36,613 nucleotides of DNA. Origin: a virus. The notes beneath the pieces were generated by a model. It was not told where the DNA came from. It searched no databases and saw only the letters and a list, made by a program, of their open reading frames with translations. The stretch lies in IMG/VR virus record IMGVR_UViG_3300043540_000086, positions 1-36,613 of that record; one strand, given 5' to 3'. The first letter of the stretch is position 1, and the number at the start of each line of letters is the position of its first letter. The position numbers and the translations under genes were made by a program. This document shows, piece after piece, positions 10,994-34,449 of this stretch.

Positions 10994-11019
10994 TTCCCGT
11001 GTCCTAGCGGACATACAAC

Positions 11020-11063
11020 GCGAGGCCCCGGAGTCCCAATCCTCCGGGGCCACTCGCACTTTT
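11020..11063 (+). terminator. Rho-independent terminator closing the capsid unit
   Basis: ggccccggag at 11024-11033 pairs perfectly with ctccggggcc at 11042-11051 around an 8-nt loop. The stem extends through gcga/tcgc (11020-11023 with 11054-11057), followed by TTTT at 11060-11063. It separates the capsid genes from the neck and tail genes. Confidence 0.75.
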
Positions 11064-21802: not shown

Positions 21803-22049
21803 AGATGACAGCGGCACTCATCCTCGCATCGGGTGGCGTGACCCGATGCGAGGATCCCGTGAGGCGTGCTGGCGATGGTGGCCGATCAGGGTCCACGACG
21901 GGATCATCTGGTGTTCGTGCGGAATCTGCGGATCGCAAGGCAGAATCATGTCACGAGGCTCCTGGTACTACTGCCCGAAATGCCTAGGTATCACGTCGTA
22001 CATGATGATGGCATCAGTGTGGATCTATAAGGTGGTGAACGTATCGTGA
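21783..22049 (+). CDS. Zinc-ribbon protein following the lysin
   Basis: This 88-aa protein starts at ATG 21783, inside the last 20 bases of the lysin gene. Cys pairs CSCGIC and CPKC (about residues 45-71) form a zinc-ribbon-like pattern around GRIMSRGSWYYCPKC. The C-terminus is hydrophobic (SYMMMASVWIYKVVNV). The frame was chosen over the GTG overlapping the lysin stop because it keeps the Cys motifs. Function unknown. Confidence 0.6.
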   Translation: MPSDDREDDSGTHPRIGWRDPMRGSREACWRWWPIRVHDGIIWCSCGICGSQGRIMSRGSWYYCPKCLGITSYMMMASVWIYKVVNVS

Positions 22050-23618: not shown

Positions 23619-23654
23619 TTGACCGCACATTAGCCGCCATGCTAATGTGCGGTC
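23619..23654 (+). promoter_or_regulatory. Promoter embedded in a perfect 13-bp inverted repeat
   Basis: gaccgcacattag (23621-23633) and ctaatgtgcggtc (23642-23654) are exact reverse complements around 8 nt. TTGACC (23619-23624) and TAATGT (23643-23648) form -35 and -10 boxes 18 bp apart, both overlapping the repeat. The predicted start falls at the A of ATG 23655, so the message would be leaderless. Binding by the encoded HTH protein would block its own promoter. Confidence 0.65.
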
Positions 23655-23870
23655 ATGTCTACAAAAACAGACTTCAAAACCCTCCGTCTTGCGAGGTCAT
23701 TGACCCAGGAAGACGTCGCCTATGAGGCTGGTGTGTCGATCGGGACGATCCGGCGCATGGAGAAGGGTCTGACCTGGGGCACCGTCACCACCCGCAGGAA
23801 GGTGGCGGATGCCCTTGGCGTGACCGTAGGAGAACTCACCAGCATTCTCGGGGGTGAGTTCGATGAGTGA
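23655..23870 (+). CDS. XRE-family transcriptional regulator
   Basis: This 71-aa protein is almost entirely a Cro/CI-type helix-turn-helix: FKTLRLARSLTQEDVAYEAG, then VSIGTIRRMEKG and RKVADALGVTVGEL. It has no second domain. No ribosome site precedes the ATG; the start abuts the inverted repeat, consistent with leaderless translation. It is first in the module that leads to the recombination genes and probably autoregulates. A Cro-like role is inferred. Confidence 0.88.
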   Translation: MSTKTDFKTLRLARSLTQEDVAYEAGVSIGTIRRMEKGLTWGTVTTRRKVADALGVTVGELTSILGGEFDE

Positions 23871-27309: not shown

Positions 27310-27372
27310 TCACGAGTGCACTCCAGATCCATAACATGCCGGGCACGGCTTCATGGCCGGGTCGTTAGTCAC
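27310..27372 (-). CDS. 20-residue peptide with CPAC knuckle
   Basis: GTG 27372 overlaps the stop of the pentapeptide gene. The peptide MTNDPAMKPCPACYGSGVHS contains a DnaJ-like CxxCxGxG half-site. It is the right size to bridge the gap to the next gene. Evidence is the coupling and the motif only. Confidence 0.4.
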   Translation of the reverse strand: MTNDPAMKPCPACYGSGVHS

Positions 27373-27760
27373 GGAGTGCACCGCGCAGGTCTGCCTCGGG
27401 CAGGTTGGCCCAGCGAAGGTCGGCGTAGCGCAGGTCGGCGTCGGACAGGTTGGCGCCCGACAGGTCGGCCCAGCGAAGGTCTGCGTAGCGCAGGTCGGCA
27501 ACGGACAGGTCGGCAACGGACAGGTTGGCACCGCGCAGGTCGGCATCGCGGAGGTTGGCGCCGTACAGGTCGGCTCCCCACAGGTCGGCGTCGGACAGGT
27601 TGGCCCAGCGGAGATCGGCGCCCGATAAGTTGACGCCCGACAGGTTGGCACCGCTCAGGTCGGCACGCACTCCGTGGGGCGCGCCGTCTAGCCAGCGGTG
27701 GTGGTCGCCAAGTACCTGTTGCAGGCGGACTCGTGGGAGTGGTGTCGTGTCGTCAGTCAT
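27365..27760 (-). CDS. Pentapeptide-repeat protein
   Basis: This 131-aa protein starts with an ATGA overlap. Residues 1-31 are a non-repeat head (TPLPRVRLQQVLGDHHRWLD). About 19 consecutive A(D/N)LXX repeats follow from residue 33 on (ADLSGANLSGVNLSGADLRW), which form a right-handed quadrilateral beta-helix. Some members of this family mimic DNA and act on gyrase or restriction enzymes; whether this one does is unknown. A truncated copy lies at 31545. It belongs to the leftward accessory operon. Confidence 0.9.
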   Translation of the reverse strand: MTDDTTPLPRVRLQQVLGDHHRWLDGAPHGVRADLSGANLSGVNLSGADLRWANLSDADLWGADLYGANLRDADLRGANLSVADLSVADLRYADLRWADLSGANLSDADLRYADLRWANLPEADLRGALRD

Positions 27761-29196
27761 GACGCCTCGATTCCGTCGAGCACGTACTCGTGCGTGGACA
27801 TCCCGTGATGCCAGGCGACCGCCGCGTGCGCGGATGGCATCTCCGCCGGCACGGGGATCAGATACCTCCGGTAGCGGCGTCCGGGAATCGGCGCCGATCC
27901 GGTCATCGCCTCATAGCGGCGCGACCACGCATCGTCGAGCACCGGGAGGTCCGATCCGATCGGCTCCGGGCTCGCGTCGACCAGCTCCACCCAGCGGCAG
28001 CGTGTGACGCCCATGCCGGGCAGCGGGTCGGCGTCCCACAGCACGCCGTAGTCGTCGGATGCGATCGCCTGCGCGCCGAGGACTTCCATCATCCGCGCGT
28101 TGCCGATCCGATCCGCCATGATGCGACGGACTTCGGCGTTTTCCTCACGGCTGATCTGCTCTGCGGTGATCGTCTCCGGGCGCATGACGATCTGCTCGGT
28201 GACCTGCGTTCCGTGGACGTGCCACAGCGCCCATCCGTCTGCCCATGCAATCGACGGGCCGGAATCGTTGTGCAGCCGGTGTGACCCCCATCCGCGCGAC
28301 CGCGACGGGTCCACAAGCTCGGTGTGGACCTCGGTCTGACGCCGGACGACGATCACGAACTTGCGATGCGGCCACCACCACCCGGCCTCCATCGCGTCGA
28401 TGCGTGCCTTGTTTGCCTCTGCCAGCTCATCGCCGATATTGAGTCCGCAGACATCGGTGAAGAACGTCAGGTACGCATTCCATCCTGCCCACCAGGTGCC
28501 GCCCCAGTATTTCCACCACGCGCCACTGACCGCGTTATGGACCCCGTCACCCACCGCGTCATCTACCGCGCCACTGACAGCGTTATGGACCCCGTCACCC
28601 ACCGCGTCATCTACCGCGCCACTGACAACACCACCCACCGCGTCATCTACCGCAATACCGACAGCGTTATCTACCGCGCGACGGACCGCACCACTGACCG
28701 CGCCATCTACAGCGTTATCGACCGCGTCACCCACCGCGTCATCTACCGCAATACCGACAGCGTTATCTACCGCACCACGGACCGCGTTATGGACCGCGCC
28801 ATCTACAGCGCCACGGACAACACCACGGACCGCGTTATCTACCGCACCACGGACCGCGTTATCTACCGCACCACGGACCGCGTTATCTACCGCGTCATCT
28901 ACCGCACCACGGACCGCGTTATCTACCGCGTCATCTACAGCGCCACGGACAGCACCGTGCGCGTCAATGATGTGCGCGGCGATTGGTGCCGCGAATGCCA
29001 TGACGATCGGGGAGTCCACCCAGATGACGTTGCCGTGCCACGGGATGCCGGCAGCCTCATAGCAACGCCGGATGCCGTCTGCGACCTTGGACTCGTCTGC
29101 GGGCGCGCAATCCAGTCCGCGAGCAATCCACTCGTCCGCCCAGGAAGCCATGCGCGCCTTCTGGGCGGGTGTGAGACGTTCGATTCTCGACGGCAT
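27757..29196 (-). CDS. DUF6745 protein with a giant tetrapeptide repeat insert
   Basis: This 479-aa protein has three parts. Residues 1-80 are an N-terminal helical head (RLTPAQKARMASWADEWIAR). Residues 81-226 are about 36 tetrapeptides of the type (G/N/D)AV(D/R/S/G). The remainder is a DUF6745-type domain: HNDSGPSIAWADGWALWHVHG, then EENAEVRRIMADRIGNARMM, VDASPEP and AAVAWHHGMSTHEY. The domain's biochemical role is unknown. The small partner that usually accompanies it is the next gene upstream. The repeat insert is absent from typical members as I know them. Confidence 0.82.
   Translation of the reverse strand: MPSRIERLTPAQKARMASWADEWIARGLDCAPADESKVADGIRRCYEAAGIPWHGNVIWVDSPIVMAFAAPIAAHIIDAHGAVRGAVDDAVDNAVRGAVDDAVDNAVRGAVDNAVRGAVDNAVRGVVRGAVDGAVHNAVRGAVDNAVGIAVDDAVGDAVDNAVDGAVSGAVRRAVDNAVGIAVDDAVGGVVSGAVDDAVGDGVHNAVSGAVDDAVGDGVHNAVSGAWWKYWGGTWWAGWNAYLTFFTDVCGLNIGDELAEANKARIDAMEAGWWWPHRKFVIVVRRQTEVHTELVDPSRSRGWGSHRLHNDSGPSIAWADGWALWHVHGTQVTEQIVMRPETITAEQISREENAEVRRIMADRIGNARMMEVLGAQAIASDDYGVLWDADPLPGMGVTRCRWVELVDASPEPIGSDLPVLDDAWSRRYEAMTGSAPIPGRRYRRYLIPVPAEMPSAHAAVAWHHGMSTHEYVLDGIEAS
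28519..28956 (-). repeat. 12-bp tandem repeat array in the DUF6745 gene
   Basis: The array encodes roughly 36 tetrapeptides with invariant AV or close variants. Larger units are also repeated, such as a 48-bp block at about 28528 and 28576. Both strands are open through the array because of its composition. Copy-number change keeps the frame. Confidence 0.92.
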
Positions 29197-31278: not shown

Positions 31279-31548
31279 CTAGACCTCCATCCGGGAGCGG
31301 CGGGCTGCTACTGCCGACTCGTGACGCTTGCGCATCCAGTCGAACTCGCGGACTCCTATGGTGAACTCCTCGCATGGAGTCGGGACGTCGGCGTATTCGC
31401 CCTTAGGGTGTGAGCTTCCCGAGCTATTGTCCTGCCAGTCATACGGGTGCCCGTGTTGGTCGTAGATGGCGAAACCGCGTGTGTGCCATCCTTGCGAGTG
31501 CCATGCCTTGACGTAGATCGCTGTTGCCGGGCGGGTGGTGTCGGTCAT
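31279..31548 (-). CDS. Hypothetical 89-aa protein
   Basis: ATG 31548 overlaps the previous stop (ATGA). The protein is His/Tyr/Trp-rich (IYVKAWHSQGWHTRGFAIYD, GHPYDWQDNSSGSS) with a basic end (RKRHESAVAARRSRMEV). It lies second in the leftward operon. The function is unknown. Confidence 0.65.
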   Translation of the reverse strand: MTDTTRPATAIYVKAWHSQGWHTRGFAIYDQHGHPYDWQDNSSGSSHPKGEYADVPTPCEEFTIGVREFDWMRKRHESAVAARRSRMEV

Positions 31549-31703
31549 GACTGTGCCCCCTTGCCGCGCAGGCTGGCGCCCGACAGGTCGGCGCCCGACA
31601 AGTCGGCACGCACTCCGTGGGGCGCGCCGTCTAGCCAGCGGTGGTGGTCGCCAAGTACCTGGTCCAGGTGGCCCTGTGGGAGTGGTGTCGTGTCGTAAGT
31701 CAT
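31545..31703 (-). CDS. Truncated pentapeptide-repeat protein, first gene of the leftward operon
   Basis: This 52-aa protein starts at ATG 31703 with agggggaatg upstream. It shares the head of the gene at 27365 (TPLPQGHLDQVLGDHHRWLD) and then VRADLSGADLSGASL, but has only about three repeats before a short unrelated tail (RGKGAQS). About 58 bp are identical between the two genes. It may be a remnant of duplication, or a head domain kept for its own role. It is directly downstream of the leftward promoter. Confidence 0.7.
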   Translation of the reverse strand: MTYDTTPLPQGHLDQVLGDHHRWLDGAPHGVRADLSGADLSGASLRGKGAQS

Positions 31704-31737
31704 GTCATTCCCCCTAGGAATCGTGTCGGTACCTAGG

Positions 31738-31766
31738 ATGATTCCACGATGTGTGATCACTGTCAA
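31738..31766 (-). promoter_or_regulatory. Promoter of the leftward operon
   Basis: On the minus strand TTGACA (31766-31761) and AATCAT (31743-31738) are 17 bp apart. The start should be near 31731, about 28 nt before ATG 31703. Two CCTAGG palindromes (31713-31718, 31732-31737) flank the start, and a GTGATCAC palindrome (31753-31760) lies within the spacer; both are operator candidates. Confidence 0.65.
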
Positions 31767-31796
31767 CACGTCAGGACGAGTGACCGTGATCAGTGG
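31753..31796. promoter_or_regulatory. Paired GTGATCA operator-like sites
   Basis: GTGATCACTG at 31753-31762 and GTGATCAGTG at 31786-31795 lie 33 bp apart, close to three helical turns. They sit between the two divergent promoters, as expected for a looping or cooperative repressor. Confidence 0.5.
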
Positions 31797-31820
31797 TTAC
31801 GCAAATTGCGCACCAATCAA

Positions 31821-31849
31821 GTGACACGTCCACTGCGCGGGGGTACGAT
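31821..31849 (+). promoter_or_regulatory. Rightward promoter for the replication genes
   Basis: GTGACA (31821-31826) and TACGAT (31844-31849) are separated by 17 bp. The predicted start is near 31856, immediately before the terminator hairpin. Confidence 0.62.
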
Positions 31850-31863
31850 GCATGCGAAACAAG

Positions 31864-31904
31864 AAGCGGCGCCGCGATCTGCGAGAGACCGGGCGCCGCT
31901 TTTT
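31864..31904 (+). terminator. Terminator/attenuator just after the rightward promoter
   Basis: aagcggcgcc (31864-31873) pairs perfectly with ggcgccgctt (31892-31901), with an 18-nt loop and five Ts at 31900-31904. No gene lies between promoter and terminator, so it would cut the transcript at about 50 nt unless relieved. Confidence 0.75.
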
Positions 31905-31925
31905 CCGACATGTCAGGGGGTGACG

Positions 31926-32294
31926 ATGCACGACAATCATAGCAGCACCACACCAGGAGAGGTCGATTCCGCGCGTAGATGGCTCCCCGGATTCGACCTC
32001 TCGGGAGTCGACCGCGAGGTGCCGTCACTGGGCTACCGCATGCAGATCATCGGGCACGAACTGCTGCCAGAGCTGGCCGCCAGGCGCATCGAATTGATCG
32101 CACGGGTGCCAAAACCGGGCCTCAGGGCGCATGAGGTCGCCGATCTTATGAAGCTCGAATGGCAGTTATCGCGCGCCGTGGACAACGCCTGGGACCGCCT
32201 GCGCGCGGCCGAGCGGGCCGCAGCGGAGTACGAGCAGTGGCTCTCCGGAGCGCGCCCGGATGATTTTTCCGGATTTTTCGCGGAGGGTGAGTAA
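31926..32294 (+). CDS. Hypothetical helical protein before the replication gene
   Basis: This 122-aa protein starts at ATG 31926 with caggggg upstream. It has a helical core (MKLEWQLSRAVDNAWDRLRA, AERAAAEYEQWLSGARPDDF) and an acidic C-terminus. It overlaps the replication gene by TAATG. It could be a partner of the initiator, but no motif supports this. Confidence 0.65.
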   Translation: MHDNHSSTTPGEVDSARRWLPGFDLSGVDREVPSLGYRMQIIGHELLPELAARRIELIARVPKPGLRAHEVADLMKLEWQLSRAVDNAWDRLRAAERAAAEYEQWLSGARPDDFSGFFAEGE

Positions 32295-32935
32295 TGCGTT
32301 CGCGGCCGGGTCCGTTCGTGTTTTTCCACGACCGTTTCCTTGAGCATCCGAAGCTCGCAGAGCTGTCCGATGGGGACGTGGTGAGGTGGATCTCTGTGGT
32401 CTGCTGGTGCGCCCGGAATGAGACCGACGGGCGATTCTCGGAGGCCGATTTTCGGATCGCTCAGAGGCGAGGGAGTGACAGGTTGGCGCGCGCTCGCCAC
32501 CACGTCGCCAACCTCGTGGCAGCCGGACTGATCGACGAAACCGACGAGGAGGGCGTGTATCAGGTCCACGATTACAGCGAGTGGCAGGAGACGAAGGAGG
32601 AGAAACTTTCACGGCGAGCAGGGCAAAGAGAGCGTGCCAACCGACACCGGGAGCGCAAGCGTCACGCCGTTACGTCACGCGTTACGCCAGAGGATGTGTC
32701 ACGCGTTAATAACGCTGTAAGAAGTAGAGGGGTTATGTCTGCTTCGCAGACAGACATAACCCCCCCGCGTGAATCTCGATCTGGAGGATCGATTCACACG
32801 GGAGAACCCAAGGGACAGGGCGGCAACCACGACGGGCCGGAACAGATGACGGATATCGATCGGTACATGCGACAGCAGGGGACGTGGGAGGAGTGGATCG
32901 AGTATGAGCGGGGGAGGGCGATTGGTGGGAGGTGA
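32294..32935 (+). CDS. Winged-helix replication initiation-like protein
   Basis: This 213-aa protein has an N-terminal domain with DRFLEHPKLAELSDGDVVRW, ADFRIAQRRG and LVAAGLIDETDEEGVYQVHDYSEWQ. This is the winged-helix layout of phage replisome organiser/initiator proteins. A basic linker follows (RAGQRERANRHRERKRHAVT). The gene contains iteron-like repeats and a 13-bp hairpin, as phage lambda keeps its origin inside O. No helicase or polymerase was found, so host replication proteins are probably recruited. The end is acidic and aromatic (EEWIEYERGRAIGGR). Confidence 0.72.
   Translation: MRSRPGPFVFFHDRFLEHPKLAELSDGDVVRWISVVCWCARNETDGRFSEADFRIAQRRGSDRLARARHHVANLVAAGLIDETDEEGVYQVHDYSEWQETKEEKLSRRAGQRERANRHRERKRHAVTSRVTPEDVSRVNNAVRSRGVMSASQTDITPPRESRSGGSIHTGEPKGQGGNHDGPEQMTDIDRYMRQQGTWEEWIEYERGRAIGGR
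32661..32763. other. Candidate replication origin inside the initiator gene
   Basis: GTCACGC(C)GTTA occurs at 32661-32672, 32674-32684 and 32698-32708. A perfect 13-bp inverted repeat follows: ggggttatgtctg (32729-32741) with cagacataacccc (32751-32763), loop 9 nt. A related palindrome GTAACGCGTTAC lies at 33027-33038. Repeats plus hairpin inside an initiator-like gene suggest an origin; this is inferred. Confidence 0.5.
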
Positions 32936-33002: not shown

Positions 33003-33078
33003 TGAGACTCAGTCTCAACAAGCCGGGTAACGCGTTACATGCTTAGGACGCTAATGATGGTAATGAGAATCAGTCTCA
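33003..33078. promoter_or_regulatory. Two palindromic operator-like sites
   Basis: TGAGACTCAGTCTCA at 33003-33017 is a perfect 7-1-7 palindrome. A copy with one mismatch lies at 33064-33078, 61 bp away and 7 bp before the -35 box of the next promoter. GTAACGCGTTAC (33027-33038) is between them. The intergenic stretch 32936-33121 holds no gene. Confidence 0.62.
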
Positions 33079-33121: not shown

Positions 33122-33535
33122 ATGCCAGCCAACGCCACACCGCTCACCCGCCCCGTCGCCGCTCCCGGACCGTCAGCGGTCGTCACAGCGTCATCCCGCC
33201 GCAACATGCGCCTCAGCAGGCTCAAGCGTCCCCGCCGCTTCGACCGCGATGCCCAGCTTGCGCTGATCGACCTCCTGGCTGCCGGCGTCGAGCGGCAGGC
33301 GGCAGAGCAGGACGCCGAGCTTAAGTCGGCGGACCGCAAGAACCTGGCCCTGGCAGCCGCGGTGCTCGTCGACAAGCATCGGCTGATCATGGGCGAGGCG
33401 ACGCAGATCACGACGGACCTCGGGCCGGATGAGGTGCGTGAGCTGGAGCGGATGCGGGAGCGGGCCGCGCTAGAGGCCAGGCGGCTCGGCGTGGATATCG
33501 CATCGGACGCCGATGCACCCCGCTGTGAGGATTAG
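33122..33535 (+). CDS. Putative small terminase subunit
   Basis: This 137-aa protein starts at ATG 33122; no ribosome site is present, in keeping with a leaderless transcript. The N-terminus is basic (NMRLSRLKRPRRFDRDAQLA). A helical core follows (DRKNLALAAAVLVDKHRLIM GEAT), of the kind found in small terminase-like proteins of phages from high-GC hosts. The C-terminus is acidic coiled coil (ELERMRERAALEARRLG). It lies about 0.9 kb before the large terminase. A regulator is an alternative. Small terminases recognise the packaging site. Confidence 0.5.
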   Translation: MPANATPLTRPVAAPGPSAVVTASSRRNMRLSRLKRPRRFDRDAQLALIDLLAAGVERQAAEQDAELKSADRKNLALAAAVLVDKHRLIMGEATQITTDLGPDEVRELERMRERAALEARRLGVDIASDADAPRCED

Positions 33536-33741
33536 CGGCTTTCGCGGTGCACGATCCGGTGCACGAGCGCGGATGTGATGCCAGCCGCATCCGCGACAGC
33601 GCGCATCGTGTGGCCTTCGGCGATCGCCGTGCGGATGGACTCGTCACGAGCGATCCGCAGCTTGCGCGCCTCGGCCTGCGAGGTCGCCAACGCGGCTGCC
33701 GCGCGGGCGACCTCGCTCAGGGGCTCATTCGGCTCATTCAC
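33532..33741 (-). CDS. Small helix-turn-helix protein
   Basis: This 69-aa protein starts at GTG 33741, overlapping the upstream gene by 8 bases. Residues 36-64 form an HTH (IRTAIAEGHTMRAVADAAGI then TSALVHRIVHR). The same pattern occurs in the gene at 26255. It converges with the terminase-like gene, overlapping by 4 bases. It probably binds DNA; its targets are unknown. Confidence 0.68.
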   Translation of the reverse strand: MNEPNEPLSEVARAAAALATSQAEARKLRIARDESIRTAIAEGHTMRAVADAAGITSALVHRIVHRESR

Positions 33742-33904
33742 CGCTGGCCGCCAAGCTCTCGGCGAGTGCGTGGCAATCGGCGACCGTATACACGGGAGTA
33801 CCCGCGCCATGGGCCCATACCACCCACTCTCCGATATTACGCTCGACCGCGTCGACCAGTACCCGCTTGGCCGCAAATATTCCCCTTACTTCGTCCTCGG
33901 TCAT
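33734..33904 (-). CDS. 56-aa hypothetical protein
   Basis: ATG 33904 is 6 nt after aggtg; an ATG three bases upstream is less well placed. The sequence is MTEDEVRGIFAAKRVLVDAV followed by WVVWAHGAGTPVYTVADCHA. It is a compact acidic protein with a Trp/Val-rich centre. It lies between two genes of a short leftward operon. The function is unknown. Confidence 0.6.
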   Translation of the reverse strand: MTEDEVRGIFAAKRVLVDAVERNIGEWVVWAHGAGTPVYTVADCHALAESLAASGE

Positions 33905-33922
33905 CATCTACACCTGGTCTTT

Positions 33923-33968
33923 CATGATGTCGATTACCCGGCTCGCATGATGTCGATTACCCGGCTCG
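33923..33968. repeat. 23-bp perfect tandem duplication
   Basis: 33923-33945 and 33946-33968 are identical. The duplication lies at the 3' end of the leftward gene 33934-34125 and is not a multiple of three, so it changes the reading frame at that gene's end. Confidence 0.93.
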
Positions 33969-34125
33969 CTTCGGCGCTGGTGAGTCCCTTGCGCTGGATG
34001 TGCGATGCGCTCCTGCCGAGGATTCTTCCGGCCGGCGTCGCCCATCCGTACTGGCCGGCGTAACTGGGGCTAATTCGGCTCGCGAGCGACTGGATGTAGC
34101 GGATCTGGCTGGCGGTGGCGGTCAT
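33934..34125 (-). CDS. Small protein whose C-terminus was altered by a duplication
   Basis: This 63-aa protein starts at ATG 34125 with aaggag upstream. The sequence MTATASQIRYIQSLASRISP ... GLTSAEASRVIDIM is helical. It now ends RAG. Without the second repeat copy it would end SRVIDIMKDQV, with its stop touching the next gene's start, the usual spacing here. It is first in the operon behind a clear promoter. Confidence 0.7.
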   Translation of the reverse strand: MTATASQIRYIQSLASRISPSYAGQYGWATPAGRILGRSASHIQRKGLTSAEASRVIDIMRAG

Positions 34126-34157
34126 GTCGGATCTCCTTGGCTCTGATTACTACGGTA

Positions 34158-34187
34158 AGCGTATCCCCTCCCGACGTGGCGTGTCAA
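34158..34187 (-). promoter_or_regulatory. Promoter of the short leftward operon
   Basis: On the minus strand TTGACA (34187-34182) and TACGCT (34163-34158) are 18 bp apart; the predicted start is near 34151. GCGTAAGCG-like repeats around it could be operators. Confidence 0.68.
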
Positions 34188-34449
34188 CCAGCGTAAGCGG
34201 ATCCAAGAAAATCTTAACAATTGGGGTGTCTGCTCTGTTGTGCGGGCGATCGGTGGCATTGCGCCGCGATGGCCCCCCGGGGTCTGCCCGCGCCGGGGCG
34301 CGCGGGCTCTGGCCTCACACCGCGGGCGCAGGCGCGGCGCGCATCGCGTCATGTATGGCGATGCGGAGCCATTCGACGTTTTTTGTTGTTTCATTTTAAC
34401 CTACCAATTTCCGCTATACAAAAAATAAAAGGCGCCGTGTATATAAGCG
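34188..34449. other. Non-coding region before the large terminase
   Basis: No gene is seen. gcccgcgc/gcgcgggc near 34298-34319 forms a very stable hairpin. gcatcgc (34341-34347) pairs with gcgatgc (34358-34364), and a run of six Ts follows at about 34379. The last 70 bases are AT-rich, with TATACA (34415-34420) and TATATA (34440-34445) as possible -10 boxes. It may hold the terminase promoter, a terminator or the packaging site. Confidence 0.5.

What the first reader, a model, noticed from the sequence alone, without database searches (positions are those of the whole stretch)
31821..31925. Terminator directly after a promoter: attenuation or antitermination switch
The rightward promoter (GTGACA-17-TACGAT) is followed within about 10 nt by a 10-bp perfect stem with T5. 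No gene separates them. The replication genes downstream can only be expressed if the terminator is bypassed, or the promoter makes a roughly 50-nt small RNA.
Basis: partly seen in the sequence, partly recalled or inferred. Interest (0 to 1): 0.7.

Follow-up and report, generated by a model that had tools for sequence, protein, structure and literature searches.

The report
Terminator in a phage replication-operon leader
In an unclassified phage that probably infects actinobacteria, a likely promoter for the DNA-replication genes is followed after a few bases by a strong stop signal for transcription, so those genes can be made only when the stop is overrun; this is probably a brake on replication, but nothing yet shows how, or whether, it is released.

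Summary
GTGACA-17-TACGAT (31821-31849) is followed by a hairpin (31861-31904) with an all-G/C 8-bp core running directly into T5. The hairpin is the only such structure in the 36.6-kb record; 300 simulated windows gave 2 in total. Only two strict promoter matches exist in the whole record, and both lie in the 222-bp divergent control region 31704-31925, pointing outwards. Predicted start 31856 and stop 31904-31906 give a ~50-nt RNA. A Shine-Dalgarno site and the ATG of a replication operon follow 21 nt after the T-run. No TAnnnT -10 element lies between the hairpin and 32045, so a start beyond the terminator is unlikely. No alternative antiterminator fold appears, only ~5-8 nt precede the hairpin, and no antiterminator protein was recognised, so 'switch' is unproven. 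The hairpin is also terminator-like on the other strand. No close relative of the phage was found; none of 96 distant replication-gene loci has the arrangement. Best reading: a promoter-proximal intrinsic terminator limits replication-gene expression to leaky or factor-dependent read-through, with a short RNA as by-product. A known kind of device at a new site in a phage with no near relative.

The parts
31821..31849 (+). rightward promoter (PR): GTGACA - 17 nt - TACGAT; predicted start about 31856
   Evidence: the TAnnnT -10 form matches the corynebacterial sigma-A consensus (PMC3890552)
31861..31904 (+). intrinsic terminator: 13-pair hairpin with 8-bp G/C core, 18-nt loop that partly pairs, T5
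   Evidence: d-score about +31 (formula used from memory)
31863..31902 (-). same hairpin read leftwards, followed by TTCTTGTTTC: possible terminator for antisense transcripts
   Evidence: d-score about +29
31856..31906 (+). predicted ~50-nt leader RNA
   Evidence: inferred from promoter and terminator positions
31915..31923 (+). Shine-Dalgarno AGGGGGTGA for the gene at 31926
   Evidence: sequence
31926..32294 (+). first gene of the operon, 122 aa, no recognised relative
32294..32935 (+). replication-initiation protein (phrog_2447, E 3.6e-21)
31738..31766 (-). leftward promoter (PL): TTGACA - 17 nt - AATCAT
31754..31792 (.). operator-like dyad TGATCACTGTCA ... TGACCGTGATCA; left arm overlaps the PL -35
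   Evidence: the two arms are the only exact copies of TGACNGTGATCA in the window
31545..31703 (-). first gene of the leftward block, short pentapeptide-repeat-like protein (phrog_7713)

Best explanation
PR is a real promoter for the operon 31926 onwards. RNA polymerase that starts near 31856 copies 5-8 nt, then the hairpin, and most complexes release at 31904-31906, leaving a ~50-nt RNA. Only polymerases that pass the hairpin, by intrinsic leakiness or because a phage or host factor has modified them, reach the Shine-Dalgarno site and make the 122-aa protein and the replication initiator. The terminator therefore acts as a promoter-proximal brake that sets, and possibly times, entry into replication. 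Shown by sequence: promoter match and placement, terminator anatomy, order, absence of another -10 element. Inferred: that both signals work in the host, that termination is incomplete or regulated, and the purpose.
For: Terminator unique and far above chance; stable in every transcript length folded. The only two strict promoter matches of the record sit in this region, divergent. Strong SD and ATG 21 nt after the T-run. No TAnnnT between 31906 and 32045. Second gene downstream is a replication initiator. Precedents: lambdoid pR'-terminator with Q (PMC6266700) and Gifsy-1 IsrK, where a terminated short RNA and a read-through mRNA come from one promoter (PMC4825925).
Against: No RNA data. No antiterminator protein or site recognised. 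No relative keeps the arrangement, so selection on it cannot be shown. Sequence alone does not give termination efficiency in the unknown host. The PR -35 is imperfect (GTGACA).
Confidence: 0.55

Rival explanations
1. The ~50-nt RNA is itself the product: a stable regulatory or host-directed small RNA; read-through is incidental.
For: Complete promoter-RNA-terminator unit. Mycobacteriophages L5, D29 and StarStuff make very abundant stable non-coding RNA from their early Pleft promoter (PMC5712189).
Against: The RNA is nearly all terminator hairpin; its loop shows no significant pairing to phage gene starts (best energy reached by 15 of 200 shuffled loops); no relative; the promoter is the only candidate for the operon.
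Confidence: 0.15
2. The hairpin is mainly a two-way insulator: it stops antisense transcripts from the leftward block (34394 to 33532) from entering the leftward operon, and the cost to rightward transcription is tolerated or the promoter call is wrong.
For: Terminator-like on the - strand too (d-score about +29); convergent genes lie downstream.
Against: Leaves the replication operon without another promoter (no TAnnnT in 31906-32045); the T-run is better on the + strand.
Confidence: 0.15
3. The hairpin does not terminate in vivo and works as a 5' stem that protects the mRNA or shapes translation start.
For: It begins 5-8 nt from the predicted 5' end and ends 10 nt before the SD.
Against: T5 directly after a perfect G/C core is the textbook terminator signature and rare in this record.
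Confidence: 0.08
4. The short RNA primes or activates the phage replication origin near the initiator gene.
For: Position upstream of the initiator gene; GC skew turns positive around 31-33 kb; other dyads and repeats nearby.
Against: No origin identified; no homologous case found.
Confidence: 0.05

Closest known systems
Lambdoid late promoter pR' with promoter-proximal terminator and Q antitermination
   Same: Promoter followed by a terminator with no gene between; downstream genes need read-through (PMC6266700).
   Different: Here the downstream operon is replication, not late genes; the leader is ~50 nt; no Q-like protein found; no -10-like pause element in the initially transcribed region.
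Gifsy-1 prophage IsrK
   Same: One promoter yields a terminated short RNA and a read-through operon mRNA (PMC4825925).
   Different: No sequence or gene relation; no alternative structures or trans-pairing found here.
Mycobacteriophage L5/D29 Pleft non-coding RNA
   Same: Actinophage; short RNA from an early promoter ahead of coding genes, far more abundant than downstream mRNA (PMC5712189).
   Different: That RNA is ~100-500 nt and lacks an evident hairpin terminator; here the terminator is canonical and the RNA ~50 nt.

Membership tests
Promoter-proximal intrinsic terminator (leader attenuator, generic) | promoter, then intrinsic terminator, then gene on one strand with no gene between | tested here: met
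Promoter-proximal intrinsic terminator (leader attenuator, generic) | terminator efficiency that changes with a signal | not testable with these tools
   needs RNA or reporter data
Lambda-type Q antitermination unit | Q-like antiterminator gene in the phage | tested here: inconclusive
   no antiterminator family among window proteins scanned, but many proteins have no family at all
Lambda-type Q antitermination unit | -10-like pause element just after the start | tested here: not met
   no TAnnnT on the + strand between 31850 and 31925
Lambda-type Q antitermination unit | controls the late operon | tested here: not met
   next genes are an unknown and a replication initiator; a leftward block at 33532-34394 separates them from the terminase
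Riboswitch, T-box or other RNA-sensed attenuator | known RNA family or mutually exclusive antiterminator fold | tested here: not met
   no Rfam match; terminator stem intact in all folds; only 5-8 nt precede the hairpin
Leader-peptide (translational) attenuation | translated short ORF upstream of or across the terminator on the transcript | tested here: not met
   the in-frame ATG at 31848 lies inside the -10 element, so it is not on the predicted RNA; no other start precedes the hairpin

The most novel reading that the evidence does not exclude
The phage carries an unrecognised processive antitermination system, possibly a product of the leftward early block, that loads at PR and licenses replication-gene transcription through the promoter-proximal terminator. 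To my knowledge (not searched exhaustively) such control of a replication operon has not been described in an actinobacterial phage.
Probability: 0.15. Interest if true: 0.6.

Novelty: new member of a known kind. Interest (0 to 1): 0.32.

Why it matters
If the terminator is regulated, it would place the decision to replicate at a transcription stop, as lambdoid phages do for late genes, in a phage group where antitermination is poorly known. If it is merely leaky, it is a simple dosage control for a replication initiator.

Tried and rejected
Late-gene Q-type control: rejected because the terminase is separated from this operon by a leftward gene block. Leader peptide from ATG 31848 running in frame through the hairpin: rejected because that ATG lies inside the -10; by eye the stretch has GC3 14/25 and GC2 16/25, unlike the gene. 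Alternative antiterminator folds with transcripts starting at 31786, 31821, 31840, 31848 or 31856: terminator stem always intact. Conservation: megablast in phages and viral-contig scans with terminase, Rep, capsid and the 122-aa protein gave no near relative; an alignment of Rep gave 14 genome and 80 viral loci, of terminase 80 viral loci, all about 24-38% identical; among 180 sequences (1.63 Mb, window included) promoter-terminator-gene by the same rule occurs only in the window. A hairpin before the Rep of L016 looked alike but lies in a coding gene. The exact stem as a DNA pattern has no match in viral contigs. Trans-pairing of the loop to gene starts: not significant. Literature searches for such leaders in actinophages gave only the L5/D29 non-coding RNA.

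Full report
WHAT THE WINDOW IS. The window is a whole IMG/VR viral record of 36,613 bases, 63% G+C. It encodes an SU10-like portal and adaptor, a major head protein, terminase, a transglycosylase/NlpC-P60 lysin, RecT, an xre-type regulator and a replication-initiation protein. The nearest relatives of the last are in Gordonia and Arthrobacter phages and in actinobacterial genomes at about 26-38% identity, so an actinobacterial host is likely (inference). No near relative was found by DNA or by protein scans.

CHECK OF THE OBSERVATION. Between the start of the leftward gene block (31703) and the rightward gene at 31926 lies a 222-base divergent control region. The rightward site is GTGACA-17-TACGAT, 31821-31849. 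With at least 5/6 in the -35 and 4/6 in the -10, only two matches exist on both strands of the whole record: this one and TTGACA-17-AATCAT at 31766-31738 on the minus strand. Both lie in this region and point outwards. Simulated windows carry about 4.8 such matches each, so the motif is not rare in general; the placement is what carries weight. TACGAT fits the TAnnnT form found at about 97% of mapped starts in Corynebacterium glutamicum, where the -35 is only weakly conserved (PMC3890552).

The hairpin has arms 31861-31873 and 31892-31904. Its 8-bp all-G/C core, GCGGCGCC/GGCGCCGC, runs directly into TTTTT. It is the only 8-bp G/C-rich perfect stem abutting a T5 run in the window; 300 third-order Markov windows gave 2 in total. 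The fold energy of 31856-31930 is -33.2 kcal/mol, z = -3.3 against dinucleotide shuffles. Energy alone is not exceptional for this G+C-rich genome; the join of compact stem and T-run is. A d'Aubenton-Carafa-type score, formula from memory, is about +31 on the plus strand and +29 on the minus strand.

WHAT FOLLOWS. With a start near 31856 the RNA reaches the hairpin after 5-8 nt and would end at 31904-31906, about 50 nt long. The Shine-Dalgarno AGGGGGTGA (31915-31923) and ATG (31926) follow. The plus strand has no TAnnnT between 31906 and 32045, so a second start between terminator and gene is unlikely. Thus the operon (122-aa protein without relatives; then the replication initiator) is probably reached only by read-through.

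MECHANISM. RNA-only switching is not supported: no Rfam match, no competing fold in transcripts with five different starts and three ends, and almost no leader before the stem. Leader-peptide control is excluded for the predicted start because the in-frame ATG at 31848 is inside the -10 element. What remains is a terminator that is leaky or is passed by a factor. No antiterminator family was recognised among the proteins scanned, but most of the leftward genes have no family, so a factor cannot be excluded. Lambda-type Q control needs further features that are absent: no -10-like element after the start, and the downstream genes are not late genes; a leftward block (33532-34394) separates them from the terminase.

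COMPARISON. 96 loci with relatives of the replication protein show terminator-like hairpins within 1.5 kb upstream in 22 cases, none preceded by a promoter match within 60 nt. Over 1.63 Mb of fetched phage, prophage and window sequence, the strict promoter-terminator-gene order occurs only in the window. In Arthrobacter phage Jinkies a terminator lies upstream of the AT-rich stretch before the genes leading to Rep, which looks like the usual order of terminator first and promoter second. The arrangement is therefore peculiar to this record in the data seen, but relatives are so distant that absence says little about conservation.

KNOWN KINDS. Promoter-proximal terminators that give a short RNA and a read-through mRNA are known in phages: the lambdoid pR' region with Q (PMC6266700) and IsrK of Gifsy-1 (PMC4825925). 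In actinophages, L5, D29 and relatives make a highly abundant RNA from Pleft whose 3' end has no evident hairpin (PMC5712189). The case here works like a simple leader terminator; membership in the Q class fails two tests.

VERDICT. Ordinary in kind, unusual in place.

Noticed in passing
window 23620-23655 and 23655-23870: A perfect 15-bp dyad (TGACCGCACATTAGC/GCTAATGTGCGGTCA) ends on the ATG of an xre-type regulator; the TGCTAATGT inside it would place the start at the ATG, i.e. a leaderless, probably self-regulated gene.
   Followed up: partly
window 31957-32002: A 15-bp inverted repeat (14/15) within the first codons of the gene at 31926, about 50 nt after the terminator, without a T-run.
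   Followed up: partly
window 32729-32763: A perfect 13-bp inverted repeat (GGGGTTATGTCTG/CAGACATAACCCC) inside the replication-initiator gene; possible origin or operator.
   Followed up: no
window about 33004-33078: Two near-identical palindromic elements (TGAGACTCAGTCTCA, TGAGAATCAGTCTCA) about 60 bp apart between the replication gene and the next gene; operator- or iteron-like.
   Followed up: no
window 21820-21855: A perfect 15-bp hairpin just after the lysin gene, without T-run.
   Followed up: no
window 11019-11060: A strong hairpin with TTTT between structural genes, a possible mid-operon terminator.
   Followed up: partly
window 27757-29196: DUF6745 protein with a long stretch of GAVDNAV-like repeats.
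   Followed up: no
window 31545-31703 and 27365-27760: Two leftward pentapeptide-repeat proteins share a nearly identical N-terminal stretch (VLGDHHRWLDGAPHGVRADLSGA), suggesting duplication with loss of repeats in the shorter one.
   Followed up: no
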